This document shows positions 33,601 through 42,600 of a stretch of DNA of 64,000 nt, piece after piece. The DNA comes from Astropecten irregularis (lineage: Eukaryota; Echinodermata; Asteroidea; Paxillosida; Astropectinidae). The stretch spans positions 12,972,431 to 13,036,430 of the forward strand of contig OZ020264.1 in assembly GCA_963971285.1 (NCBI GenBank), given 5' to 3'. The notes beneath the pieces were generated by a model. The model ran no database searches and had not been told where the DNA came from. It saw only the letters and a program-made list of their open reading frames with translations. Each line of letters begins with the position of its first letter. The first letter of the stretch is position 1. Made by a program: the position numbers and the translations under genes.

Positions 33601-36600
33601 CCTGATGGAAATAGAGTCAAGATTGAATTGGTACTGGTAGAAATAAGAGTAAGACCAGGCTGGAGTCAACGTGGCCGAATTGCATACACCTCTAGATACA
33701 TTTATTTTCGGAATACTAGCAAAATTATAATCAATATAATTCTCTTTCAATACCACAGATGGCAGTGTTCGTTTGGTGAATGGAAGCTCGTCTTCAGAAG
33801 GCCGTGTTGAAGTCTTCTACCAAGGCCAGTGGGGAACAGTATGTGATGACTCGTGGGATCTCCAAGATGCTACTGTTGTCTGTCGGCAGCTCGGCTTCCC
33901 ATCTGCTGTTAGAGTTGTCTCTGCTTCAGTGGTATTTTCGCCTGGTAGCGGACCTATTGTGTTTGATGACGTTGAATGTACTGGAGATGAAAGTCAATTG
34001 GCAGACTGCTCCCACAGAGGTTGGAACGTAAACAACTGCGGCCATTCAGAGGATGCTGGAGTCGTCTGTGCTGCATCTTTGCCAACTGCGGGGCCTTCTC
34101 TTTTACCGTTGCCAGGTAATTCAATATCGTTCCCTTTGACGCCATTACCACCAACTAATTTTTGGTCGACTTTTCAGATTACCTTAAAAGAGGTTGGAAC
34201 CTTTTACACTTTTCAGATTACCTTAAAAGAGGTTGGAACCTTTTACACTTGGTTGAGGGTAAAACTCTTAGGTTGTGATTCTAATCGTTTCCATTTTCTT
34301 ACCGTGTCGCCATCTTCTTTTCAGAGGGAAGCATAAGACTCGTGGACGGTTCCTCCCCGTACGAAGGTCGCATTGAGATTCTCCACGATAATGCATGGGG
34401 AACAATATGCGATGACGGGTGGGATAGCTTGGACGCCATTGTTGCTTGCCGCCAGCTGGGATTCGGACCACCGACCGACGATCTGATCAGATTCGGTCAG
34501 GCAACGGGCGAGATATTTCTTGAGAGTGTAAACTGCGCCGGGTCTGAGACGCACCTCCTGGCATGCGGAAACATTGGCTGGTATGAACACAACTGTGCCC
34601 ACAGTGAGGATGTTGGTGTGGTCTGCTCCCAGGTTGCGCCAACTTGGGAAGGAGGATTCCAAGGTGAGTATACGCCAACGGTCGGGAAGACTCGTGCCAG
34701 CCCTGATAGACTAAAGATTAAGAACTGGTAGTCTCCAACCACGGGTGACCCGTTGTCCATACAGTGTTGTTTGTGGACAGCTGGGCTGCCAACCAGCAGC
34801 CTCCCTGTATCATCTCTCACGATTTCCCAGCAGGTTCCCGGATGATATTCCTGGAATTGAGAGTCGGGGGATGAATCTTTTATTTTAAATGATTAAACAT
34901 CATAGATTTATCTCAAATATATCAACAATGAACCAGGATAGCTAATTATTCTATCACCACAGATGGCAGCATTCGTTTGGTTGATGGGATCTCGTCTTCA
35001 GAAGGCCGTGTTGAAGTCTTCTACCAAGGCCAGTGGGGAACAGTATGCGACGACGAGTGGGATCTCCAAGATGCTACCGTTGTCTGTCGGCAGCTCGGCT
35101 TCCTATCTGCTGTAAGACAAGTCTATGCTGCTGAAGAATTTCCTCCTGGGGAAGGACCGATTTTCTTGGATAATGTTGAATGTTCTGGAGATGAAAGTTA
35201 TTTGGGAGACTGCTCTCACCAAGGTTGGAATGTCAGTAACTGCGGTCACTCCGAGGATGCTGGAGTCGTGTGTCTGGCTCCATCTCAGCCAACTATTCCA
35301 TCAACTACACAACTACCAGGTGAATTGATTTGCTTTGTTGTATTTGTGTATTTTATCATTATTCTCATGTCTTTCATATTGTCCACCATGGTTATTCATC
35401 TTTATCCTGTGTTCAGCACTTCTTTTTGCATCTGCATAGGATGTTGATGCACTCCATTTTCCTTTCTTCCTTCCTCTTGCTCTTGGACCGTCGATTTATA
35501 CTCCTTCCATCACAAGATCAACAATGATCCAGGTGACCAATCGTTCTGAAACTGCATCAGTTTCCAAAATGGTTCTAAAATGGTTGCTCATGCCGAAGGT
35601 GGTAGTGGGGACAAGCTCCCACCACCTACAAAGTGCCCTCAATGGCACGCGTCTCAGAAAGCCTTTTGCAACCGATCGAGTCCAACTCCAGGTATATTAG
35701 TTCTTATACAGAGTGATGATGTGGCTGTCTCTCATGCCCTGTAGCACCTCGCCTTATTCCCAACACTGACAGGAGTTCATGCAGCTGCTCGAGCAGAACG
35801 CCTCTGCCACACTTACTAATAATCTGTTTAATTTCTATCACCTCAGATGGCAGCGTTCGTTTGGTGAACGGAAGCTCGTCTTTAGATGGCCGTGTTGAAG
35901 TCTCCTACCAAGGCCAGTGGGGTACAGTATGTGACGACTCGTGGGATCTCCGAGATGCTACTGTTGTGTGTCGGCAGCTCGGCTTCGCAGCTGCTGTAAG
36001 AGTTGTCTCTGCTTCAGCGGTATTTTCACCTGGTAGCGGACCAATTTTCTTTGATGACGTCGAATGTACTGGAGATGAAAGTAGATTGGCAGACTGCTCC
36101 CACAGAGGTTGGAATGTGAATAACTGCGGCCATGTAGAAGATGCTGGAGTCGTCTGTGCTGAATCTTTCAATAACACATATGGCAGTATTCGTTTGGTTG
36201 GTGGAAGCTCGTCTTTAGAAGGCCGTGTTGAAGTCTTCTACCAAGGCCAGTGGGGTACAGTATGCGATGACTCCTGGGATCTCCAAGATGCTACTGTTGT
36301 CTGTCGACAGCTCGGCTTCCCATCTGCTGTAAGAGTTGTCTCTGCTTCAGCGGTATTTTCACCTGGTAGCGGACCAATTGTCTTTGATGACGTTGAATGT
36401 ACTGGAGATGAAAGTAGATTGGCAGACTGCTCCCATCGTGGTTGGAACGTCAACAACTGCGGCCATTCAGAGGATGCTGGAGTTGTCTGTGCTGCATCTT
36501 TCAATACCACAGATGGCAGTGTTCGTTTGGTAGATGGAAGCTCGTCTTTAGAAGGCCGTGTTGAAGTCTTCTACCAAGGCCAGTGGGGAACAGTATGTGA

Positions 36601-39600: not shown

Positions 39601-42600
39601 GGCAGCTCGGCTTCCCATCTGATGAAAGTGCTGTCTCTGCTTCAGGCGCATTTTCCTCTGGTGAGGGACCAATTTTCTTTGATGACGTTGAATGTACTGG
39701 AGATGAAAATAGATTGGCAGACTGCTCCCACAGAGGTTGGAATGTGAACAACTGCGGCCATTCAGAGGATGCTGGAGTCGTCTGTGCTGCATCTTTGCCA
39801 ACTTCCGAGCCTTCACTTTCACCGTCGTCAGGTAATTCAATATCGTTATACCTCTTGACGACATTACCACCACCCGATTTTCTTTTAGATTATATACCTT
39901 ATACAGAGGTTAGGACCCTTTCCATGTGCTTTAAGGTGACACCAGTGTGGTTCTGATTCCAATCATTCCCATTTTCTTACCGTATCGCCATCTTCTTTCC
40001 AGAGGGAAGCATAAGACTCGTGGACGGCTCCTCCCCGTACGAAGGTCGCATTGAGATTCTCCACGATAATACATGGGGAACAATATGCGATGACGGCTGG
40101 GATAGCTTGGACGCCCTTGTTGCTTGCCGTCAGCTGGGATTCGGACCACCGACCGACGATCTGATCAGATTCGGCCAGGCGACTGGCGCGATATTTCTTG
40201 AGAGTCTAACCTGCGTCGGGTCTGAGACGCACCTTCTGGAATGCGGAAATGACGGCTGGTTCACACACAACTGTGCCCATAACGAGGATGTTGGTGTGGC
40301 TTGCTCCCAAGTTGGGCCAACAATCGCAGGAGTCCAAGGTGAGTTTACACCTACGATCGCCGGGTAACCTCTGCCAGACCCCGACGTCAATAGACTCATG
40401 GTTGAATTGGTGCAGGTAGAAATAAGATCAGGCTGGAGTCAACGTGGTGGAGTTGCTTATACCTTTATACATATCATTGGAATTTTCCTTTGAGCTTCAC
40501 GTATACAATTTGATATTTACAGCATTTGTTATGGTGTAAGTTTTCCGTCCGACAGTCACATTATAAATAATTGATAAGGTTCCCTCAAGATACTCCTTGA
40601 TTTTTAAAGCTTAATATTGTGTATTTTTAAAACAAATATTATACACGTCATAGAGTAATATACAATATTATAACAATGATCCAGAATAAGTCATCGTTCT
40701 GAAACAGCAATAATTTTCTATATCTCCACAGATGGCAGTGTTCGTTTGGTTGACGGAAGCTCGTCTTCAGAAGGCCGTGTTGAAATATTCTTCTTTGGTC
40801 AGTGGGGGACGGTGTGTGACGACTTGTGGGATTTACCAGACGCCACTGTTGTATGTCGACAGCTCGGCTTCCCATCTGCCGCCAGTGCCGCCTCTGCTTC
40901 AGCGATATTCTCACCTGGTACTGGACGAATTTACTTGGATGATGTTCAATGTACTGGAGATGAAAGTACATTGGCAGACTGCGCTCACCCTGGTGTGAGT
41001 TTAAATAACTGTGATCATACGGAGGATGCTGGAGTCGTGTGTGATACATCTTTGCCAACTGATGGTAACTACCTTTACAATTATTCTTTGCATCAGACCA
41101 GGCAGCAATGATCTCTAAGTTTCATTTTTCCTTCGGAACTTCACTATTCCACATTTTACTTTCTCACGCTTATTTGTTTATTGATTGGTTTGTAAGTTTT
41201 TTATTCATACATCAAGTGTTTCAATAATCATTTTTTGGATTAGGATTTATTTTCGGAATAATAGGAAAACTTGGAAGTTTCTCTAGATACATTGATATTT
41301 CCCCTTAAGCTTTCTAAACGGCTTAGAGATAGTTTCAGGTATGTAATCAAGTGCTTGAATGAAATTTGAAGCAGGATTTATTTTCGGTATACTTGCAAAA
41401 GTGTAATCCATATAATTCTCTTTCAATACCACAGATGGTAGTGTTCGTCTGGTTGGTGGAAGCTCGTCTTTAGAAGGCCGTGTTGAAGTCTTCTACCAAG
41501 GCCAGTGGGGAACAGTATGTGATGACTCGTGGGATCTCCAAGATGCTACTGTTGTCTGTCGGCAGCTCGGCTTCCCGTCTGCTGTAAGAGAAGTTTCTGC
41601 TGCTGATGAATTTCCTCCTGGAGACGGACCGATTTTCTTTGATGACGTAGAATGCACTGGAGATGAAAGTAGATTGGCAGACTGCTCCCACAGAGGTTGG
41701 AATGTCAACAACTGCGGCCATTCAGAGGATGCTGGAGTCGTCTGTGCTGCATCTTCCAATACCACAGTTGGCAGCATTCGTTTGGTTGGTGGAAGCTCGT
41801 CTTTAGAGGGCCGTGTTGAAGTCTTCTACCAAGGCCAATGGGGTACAGTATGTGATGACTTGTGGGATCTTCAAGATGCTACTGTTGTCTGTCGGCAGCT
41901 CGGCTTCCCATCTGCTTTAAGACATGTCTCTGCATCAGCGGTATTTTCGCCTGGTAGTGGACCGATATTTTTGGATGACGTAGAATGTACTGGAGATGAA
42001 AGTCAATTGGCAGACTGCTCCCACGCAGGTTGGACTGTGAATAACTGCGCCCATTCAGAGGATGCTGGAGTCGTCTGTGCATCACCTTTGACAACTGCCG
42101 GTCCTCCACTTTCGACGTTGCCAGGTAAATCAGAGTCGTTACCTCTTTGACGCCATTAACTATTTTGTTTTCGATAGACTTTTCAGATTACCTTTGACAC
42201 TTTAAGGTGACACTGGTCAGGTTCTGATTCTAATCATTCCCATTTCCTTACCGTGTCGCCATCTTCTTTCCAGAGGGAAGCATAAGACTCGTGGACGGCT
42301 CCTCCCCGTACGAAGGTCGCTAGGCCTTCATAAATTTAACGAGACCTCATTTTTAATTTCAGATATAACCGATGGCACTTTGCGACTGTCTGAAGGGACG
42401 GGTCCATCCAATGGACGTTTGGAGGTCCACTACAGGGGCCAGTGGGGCACGGTTTGCGACGACCAGTGGGACCTCAAAGACGCCCAGGTCGTATGCCGTC
42501 AGCTCGGCTTCGGCTCAGCTGACCCAGACCACTATCGAGCCTTCTACGGCAAGGGACGGGGGCCAGTCCTCGTGGATGAAGTCAACTGCACGGGGGCCGA

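What the first reader, a model, noticed from the sequence alone, without database searches (positions are those of the whole stretch)
35847..42124. Intron tails turned into coding linkers with N-glycosylation sequons in fused SRCR exons
Four exons carry two or three SRCR domains (35847-36869, 37657-38346, 39142-39831, 41435-42124). At all five internal joints the sequence reads GCATCTTTCAATACCACAG then ATGGC or a close variant. The TTTCAATACCACAG part is the 3' end of the introns that precede single class A exons elsewhere in this gene (for example 31782-31795, 33745-33758, 39128-39141). So an intron was deleted between TCTTT in the upstream exon and TCTTT in the intron tail, and the acceptor became coding. 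Every joint keeps 333 bp from domain start to domain start, so frame is kept, and every joint reads FNTT, FNNT or SNTT, a glycosylation sequon absent from the spliced linkers. Intact AG acceptors remain inside the exons and could still be used.
Basis: partly seen in the sequence, partly recalled or inferred. Interest (0 to 1): 0.85.

Follow-up and report, generated by a model that had tools for sequence, protein, structure and literature searches.

The report
Intron tails became receptor linkers
In a scavenger-receptor gene of what looks like a sea star, the tail end of an intron has become part of the protein where neighbouring repeat domains were fused into one exon, adding a possible sugar-attachment site; the fusion is real, but the underlying kind of DNA rearrangement is already known.

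Summary
Four exons (35847-36869, 37657-38346, 39142-39831, 41435-42124) encode 3+2+2+2 SRCR domains with open frames. At all five joints the sequence switches at TCTTT: the 60 nt before it match class A exon ends (93%), not introns (18%); the 11 nt after it match the intron 3' tail (96%), not exon ends (33%). The joint is therefore a captured intron acceptor. Corrections: joint 1 has lost the AG (4 of 5 keep it); one spliced linker elsewhere (exon 28417) also has a sequon; 'an intron was deleted' is one of two routes to the same letters, the other being a tandem duplication with the same TCTTT breakpoints. In four exon/tail pairings tried, TCTTT was the only microhomology of 5 bp or more whose product is in frame and stop-free; 184 of 308 open in-frame joints would carry a sequon anyway, so the sequon needs no selection. 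The nine fused domains, pooled, are under purifying selection. A genome search found the joint at these five places only. Another SRCR family (contig C23) also lost the matching intron, apparently precisely. Imprecise, repeat-associated intron loss is published; this is a neat, amplified instance. No transcripts were available.

The parts
35847..36869 (+). fused exon with three class A SRCR domains (domain starts 35849, 36182, 36515); own acceptor of a different class (ATTTCTATCACCTCAG)
36164..36179 (+). joint 1, TCTTTCAATAACACAT: captured intron tail, AG mutated to AT, sequon NNT
36497..36512 (+). joint 2, TCTTTCAATACCACAG: captured intron tail, sequon NTT
37657..38346 (+). fused exon with two class A SRCR domains (37659, 37992)
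   Evidence: Pfam SRCR, two stretches
37974..37989 (+). joint 3, TCTTTCAATACCACAG, sequon NTT
39142..39831 (+). fused exon with two class A SRCR domains (39144, 39477)
39459..39474 (+). joint 4, TCTTTCAATACCACAG, sequon NTT
41435..42124 (+). fused exon with two class A SRCR domains (41437, 41770)
41752..41767 (+). joint 5, TCTTCCAATACCACAG (then TTGGC), sequon NTT, AG kept
33743..33758 (+). intron 3' tail TCTTTCAATACCACAG before the single class A exon 33759; homology of this exon with the last domain of each fused exon starts here
31780..31795 (+). same intron tail before single class A exon 31796
37641..37656 (+). same intron tail, genuine acceptor of fused exon 37657
39126..39141 (+). same intron tail, genuine acceptor of fused exon 39142
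41419..41434 (+). same intron tail, genuine acceptor of fused exon 41435
36164..40491 (+). tandem array of about 1.48-kb blocks (tail, two A domains, class B exon, introns); 36164-39002 aligns with 37641-40491 at 91.2%, so joint 1 lines up with the intron tail of the next block

Best explanation
This is a multi-SRCR, probably transmembrane, receptor gene in which a rearrangement guided by a 5-bp TCTTT repeat joined the end of one class A exon (...GCA TCTTT) to the last 16 nt of the intron before another class A exon (TCTTT CAATACCACAG). The intron tail thereby became an 8-residue in-frame linker, AASFNTTD, in place of the 16-residue Ser/Thr/Pro-rich spliced linker of the neighbouring class A exons. 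The joint arose once or a few times and was then copied by duplication of 1.48-kb blocks and by unequal exchange between near-identical domains. The fused exons are most likely read through as tandem SRCR domains, and the linker Asn is probably available for N-glycosylation. Shown: the chimeric joint, its breakpoint, the frame, and constraint on the fused domains as a pool. Inferred: the deletion (or duplication) step, read-through in mRNA, and glycosylation.
For: Sharp switch of homology at TCTTT at 5 of 5 joints. Single exon 33759 with its intron tail aligns over 946-970 columns (83-86%) with the last domain and downstream region of three of the four fused exons and over 632 (80%) with the fourth, each time starting at the TCTTT of the joint. 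In four exon-end/intron-tail pairings tried, of 25 possible with the pieces loaded, TCTTT is the only microhomology of 5 bp or more that gives an in-frame, stop-free product. All four exons are open. pN/pS over all pairs of the nine fused domains is 0.26, and 0.15 and 0.20 in the parts outside the variable segment, whose limits I chose after seeing the variable sites. Phase-1 introns precede the class A, B and C exons tabulated (read), and tails with 2 mismatches stand before class A exons 30112 and 30666, so the intron state looks ancestral. In another SRCR family on contig C23, six two-domain exons have unfused paralogues (three pairs of hits) with an intron of about 0.65-0.85 kb at the joint, so loss of this intron does occur in this genome.
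Against: No RNA or second individual was available. For 9 of 9 fused domains the closest relative lies in another exon (adjacent co-exonic pairs 87.7-90.9% identical, other pairs up to 95.5%), and only 3 of 16 inner branches of the domain tree are well supported, so the number of events and the donor exons cannot be read off. For the two-domain exons a 333-bp in-exon duplication explains the letters equally well. Surveys in other lineages find imprecise intron loss rare (2 against 643 precise in Dictyostelium, PMC4683709, passage).
Confidence: 0.8

Rival explanations
1. Tandem duplication, not intron deletion: a segment starting at TCTTT in an intron tail and ending at TCTTT in the exon end (333 bp within one exon, or longer across exons) was duplicated, so the tail became internal while every intron stayed in place. 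This is a different route to the same tail capture; the figure is its share as the route.
For: Gives the identical joint and the 333-bp period; TRF sees 333-bp tandem units starting in the intron tail at 37641, 39126 and 41419. Needs no loss of a class B exon.
Against: The three-domain exon has an acceptor of a different class from its joints, so it cannot be a simple duplicate of its own exon. Adjacent co-exonic domains have pS 0.20-0.29 against 0.22 over all pairs, so they are not more alike than the rest; exchange between domains makes this weak.
Confidence: 0.38
2. Five independent intron deletions, one per joint, all at the same TCTTT repeat.
For: TCTTT is the only viable in-frame microhomology of at least 5 bp in the four pairings tried, so recurrence would give the same joint; joint 1 and the joint inside the 1.48-kb blocks sit at different places of the block, which suggests two events.
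Against: Blocks carrying a joint are tandem copies of each other (91.2% over 2.86 kb), so most joints are copies.
Confidence: 0.07
3. Polarity reversed: fused exons with the FNTT linker are ancestral and introns were gained into the linker.
For: The same letters occur in linker and intron tail, which by itself is symmetric evidence.
Against: Phase-1 introns precede the class A, B and C exons tabulated here. Single-exon SRCR domains are stated for a sea urchin cluster, with one gene deviating (PMC10855680, passages), and for WC1 (PMC2681482, passages).
Confidence: 0.04
4. The captured acceptors are still used: each fused exon is a ladder of in-frame alternative acceptors, so transcripts vary by 111 residues per step.
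For: 4 of 5 joints keep AG (three with all 16 nt of the tail, joint 5 with one change in them); using an internal AG keeps the frame because the units are 333 nt. WC1 transcripts lacking whole SRCR domains are reported (PMC2681482, passage).
Against: Joint 1 lost its AG. Joints have 9-11 pyrimidines of 16 at -20 to -5 against 12 of 16 in five real acceptors, and no yTnAy match in -60 to -17; of the five real acceptors three have one such match at -58, one has none, and that of the three-domain exon has two, so this does not decide. The genuine acceptor comes first and is intact.
Confidence: 0.12

Closest known systems
Imprecise intron loss by genomic deletion or end joining (Drosophila grimshawi GH15541, PMC3296678 Figure 4 legend; plants, PMC4443532 abstract; fission yeast and Dictyostelium, PMC3629103 and PMC4683709 passages; [quoted passage not shown]
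   Same: The Drosophila case leaves intron nucleotides in the coding sequence between direct repeats; the four fission yeast cases caused no frameshift
   Different: Here the retained piece is a complete 3' splice-site tail, it lies between two tandem domains, it is present in five copies, and it encodes a sequon. Dictyostelium cases had no repeats. Tandem duplication is not excluded here
Multi-SRCR receptors CD163/M130, WC1, PIT54, DMBT1
   Same: Tandem SRCR domains; best solved-structure matches are CD163 (E 1.9e-259) and PIT54 (8.5e-164); the linker between the first two aligned CD163 domains is three residues shorter than the fused linker
   Different: In the sea urchin cluster and in WC1 each SRCR domain has its own exon (PMC10855680, PMC2681482, passages); class A domains here have six cysteines
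Two-domain SRCR exons on contig C23 of the same genome
   Same: Two SRCR domains in one exon through loss of the phase-1 interdomain intron
   Different: Loss looks precise: fused CATCCTTCGTCAG|CTGTGG against exon end CATCCTTCATCAG| and tail TTGATCAG| in one unfused paralogue. In a second the exon ends CATCCTTCATCCG|, which would leave room for capture of the intron's AG; the third exon end was not read. Linker VQEDGHPSSA, no sequon

Membership tests
Imprecise, microhomology-associated intron loss | short direct repeat at both breakpoints | tested here: met
   TCTTT in exon ends and in intron tails
Imprecise, microhomology-associated intron loss | intron nucleotides retained or exon nucleotides lost, frame kept | tested here: met
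   11 intron nt beyond the shared TCTTT are present, exon linker and donor missing at the joint, frame open
Imprecise, microhomology-associated intron loss | orthologue with the intron present between the same two exons | not testable with these tools
   the search tool states that this genome has no relatives held; only single-exon paralogues such as 33759 could be compared
Tandem duplication within or across exons | both copies from one source, most alike at origin | tested here: inconclusive
   co-exonic domains are not closest relatives, but exchange between domains blurs this
SRCR domain (Pfam PF00530) | profile match above cut-off | tested here: met
   241.1 bits against 26.1, two stretches, for 37659-38300
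Precise intron loss (cDNA-mediated) | exons joined exactly at splice sites | tested here: not met
   the joint lacks the last 35 of the 46 nt of the exon-end linker and holds 11 intron nt beyond the shared TCTTT
De-intronization (splice-site mutation, intron retained) | whole intron present and read as exon | tested here: not met
   at most 16 nt of the intron are present
N-glycosylated linker | glycan at Asn of N-X-S/T | not testable with these tools
   sequon present at 5 of 5 joints; occupancy unknown

The most novel reading that the evidence does not exclude
The captured 3' splice sites remain functional, so one fused exon can be entered at its genuine acceptor or at an internal former intron acceptor, always in frame, giving receptor isoforms that differ by whole SRCR domains and by glycosylated linkers.
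Probability: 0.1. Interest if true: 0.6.

Novelty: new variant of a known kind. Interest (0 to 1): 0.38.

Why it matters
It is an unusually readable case of non-coding DNA becoming protein: exon end, intron tail and product survive side by side in one gene, in several copies. It shows how fusing domain exons also swaps the linker (16 to 8 residues, Ser/Thr/Pro-rich to N-sequon), which could change spacing and sugars of a receptor in one step. Another SRCR family in the same genome lost its intron in an apparently precise way, so both modes can be compared in one species.

Tried and rejected
Amphioxus as source: a search for GFP family exons found nothing, but neither did any control genome, so it decides nothing. 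The mitochondrial contig reads sensibly with the echinoderm code (AAA = Asn) and has, naming the genes by eye, cox1, tRNA-Arg, nad4L, cox2, tRNA-Lys, with tRNAs and nad1 on the other strand before cox1; I recall this as the sea star arrangement. No tool named the species.

Selection for the sequon: not shown. Of 308 open in-frame joints of exon 33759 with its own tail, 184 carry a sequon. Four substitutions in the 18 nt of the joint separate joints 1 and 5 from the other three (joint 1 also has GAA for GCA just upstream) and none destroys the sequon, but by my hand estimate (34/48 to the fourth power) that happens about a quarter of the time by chance.

Linker sequons as unique to the joints: rejected. 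In an SRCR gene on contig C22, 5 of 5 exons read in L044 have NSS or NST just after the last Cys (four of the exon ends shown).

C23 two-domain exons as a second case of tail capture: considered because AG stands at the old acceptor position; thought less likely because unfused paralogue L053 has an exon ending in ATCAG; L055 ends in ATCCG and keeps the idea open.

Open frame as proof of fusion: not accepted by itself, because a C23 locus (L043) has a 296-aa frame that appears to run through a short intron. At the joints here only 24 nt separate the domains.

Structure prediction of the two-domain exon: mean pLDDT 41.8 on a 5-row alignment, not used.

Literature: the listings (up to 20 titles each) showed no report of intron-derived linkers between SRCR domains; I read passages of six papers and one outline with abstract. 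This covers the held open-access library only.

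Full report
What was checked. The four exons named in the finding exist at the stated coordinates. Each has an AG acceptor, a CAG|GTAA donor, a length divisible by three and an open frame. They hold 3, 2, 2 and 2 class A SRCR domains whose starts are 333 nt apart; Pfam SRCR matches in two stretches in the exon at 37657. 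In the window 33 SRCR matches lie on the plus strand from 25.2 to 45.4 kb, 29 of full length and 4 partial. I take them for one gene that ends in a transmembrane segment and cytoplasmic tail at 45922-46350; the segment was seen by eye, Pfam gave only a match below cut-off there.

The joint. At five joints the upstream 60 nt match ends of class A exons at 92.7% and the corresponding intron positions at 17.7% (means of 25 comparisons each). After the shared TCTTT the picture flips: the next 11 nt match intron tails at 96.4% and exon ends at 32.7%, and the next 60 nt match the starts of domains behind genuine acceptors at 90.6%. Tails and exon ends were chosen for having TCTTT. The joint is exon end plus intron tail. 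Three of five joints are letter-identical to the intron tail over 16 nt; joint 1 has AATAACACAT and has lost the AG, joint 5 has TCTTCC and TTGGC. The genome search returned these five only, at up to 3 mismatches in 30 nt.

How it arose. In BLAST of the region against itself, the single exon 33759 with its tail aligns from TCTTT onward with 36497, 37974, 39459 and 41752, through the domain and the next intron and, in three cases, the class B exon. The block 36164-39002 aligns with 37641-40491 at 91.2%: joint 1 in the three-domain exon lines up with the true intron tail of the next block. So the three-domain exon looks like a single exon with its own, different acceptor (ATTTCTATCACCTCAG) joined to a complete two-domain block at its intron tail. 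The joint inside the blocks was copied with them. This asks for one joint-forming event plus exchange, or two events.

Why this joint. I listed exact matches between exon ends (30 nt before the last Cys codon's end to 20 nt into the intron) and the last 60 nt of introns in four pairings. Of those of at least 5 bp, only TCTTT gives an in-frame product without stop; the others, up to 8 bp, give a wrong frame or a stop. In one pairing 0.97% of junction positions have 5 bp or more. Of 924 in-frame joints of exon 33759 with its own tail, 616 have a stop, and 184 of the 308 open ones carry a sequon. The observed sequon follows from the tail AATACCACAG and its phase.

Deletion or duplication. Both give the same letters. 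For deletion: the foreign acceptor class of the three-domain exon, and an intron loss in another SRCR family here. For duplication: 333-bp tandem units beginning in the intron tail, and no class B exon need be lost. Domain similarity does not decide: adjacent co-exonic pairs are 87.7-90.9% identical, other pairs reach 95.5% (19 class A domains; decayed exons left out), 3 of 16 inner branches are well supported, and the domains are mosaics around a variable segment.

Is it coding. Over all pairs of the nine fused domains pN/pS is 0.26; it is 0.15 and 0.20 outside the variable segment at domain nt 139-213 and 0.46 inside it (segment chosen). First and later domains were not tested apart. The blocks that carry the joint differ by about 9%, so the joint is at least as old as that divergence. 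Read-through in RNA is inferred.

Comparison inside the genome. A two-domain protein query gave 166 SRCR matches (626 candidates, 150 scored, list cut). In the listed rows, stop-free matches over both domains outside the window are six on C23; four more rows cross the joint but hold a stop (C22:5178108, C23:11518087, C23:11384012, C23:8129640). The C23 exon has unfused paralogues, three pairs of hits. One (L053) reads exon end CATCCTTCATCAG|GTACG and tail TTGATCAG|CTGTGG against fused CATCCTTCGTCAG|CTGTGG; a second (L055) has exon end CATCCTTCATCCG|GTAAG with the same tail; the third exon end was not read. This fits a precise loss, perhaps inside an ATCAG repeat, with capture of the intron's AG as the alternative.

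Comparison with print. An imprecise intron loss between direct repeats that left intron nucleotides in the coding sequence is described in Drosophila (PMC3296678, passages and figure legend). Imprecise losses are also reported in fission yeast (four; PMC3629103, passages), Dictyostelium (two, without repeats; PMC4683709, passages) and plants (PMC4443532, abstract). One-domain-one-exon structure is stated for sea urchin SRCR genes, with one exception in the cluster shown (PMC10855680, passages), and for WC1 (PMC2681482, passages). Starfish SRCR proteins were found on coelomocytes, and one is cited as an opsonin (PMC13409769, passages). The listings showed no report of intron-derived SRCR linkers.

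Verdict. The mechanism class is known; the amplified capture of a full acceptor as a linker is a pleasing variant. That the animal is a sea star rests on mitochondrial code and gene order, partly recalled.

Noticed in passing
class A domains, domain nt 139-213 (for example 37797-37871): Variable segment with a few recurring versions ([22 protein letters not shown], others) that seem shuffled among domains independently of the flanks; pN/pS 0.46 against 0.15 and 0.20 around it.
   Followed up: partly
33056-33087 and 42276-42320: Remnants of a class A exon and a class B exon, cut short, still with their acceptors (by eye).
   Followed up: no
31206-31663: 48-bp tandem array, 9.5 copies at 96%, in an intron of the receptor gene.
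   Followed up: no
L044 (contig C22:5184001-5188000): Another SRCR gene whose exon-end linkers read VNSTITG, FNSTITG or VNSSVTG: a sequon directly after the last Cys in 5 of 5 exons read.
   Followed up: partly
L010-L014, L016, L051-L056 (contig C23): Two-domain SRCR exons with unfused paralogues that keep an intron of about 0.65-0.85 kb; loss looks precise, with ATCAG at exon end and intron tail in one of two unfused exon ends read.
   Followed up: partly
45922-46350: Apparent transmembrane segment and cytoplasmic tail with NPYAAM and SPVYETSL, possible uptake or signalling motifs (meaning recalled).
   Followed up: no
L039 (contig C131:32162-33484) and L041 (C25:9951047-9952018): A COX1 gene without TGA codons on contig C131, perhaps bacterial, and a COX1 copy with 7 TGA inside contig C25, perhaps nuclear mitochondrial DNA.
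   Followed up: no
11130-11188, 22750-22791: Short arrays of 6-bp units (TCCGGC, AGGCTC); similar Arg-Leu repeats in six-frame translation near 1.7, 5.2, 20.9 and 43.8 kb suggest a dispersed element (by eye).
   Followed up: no
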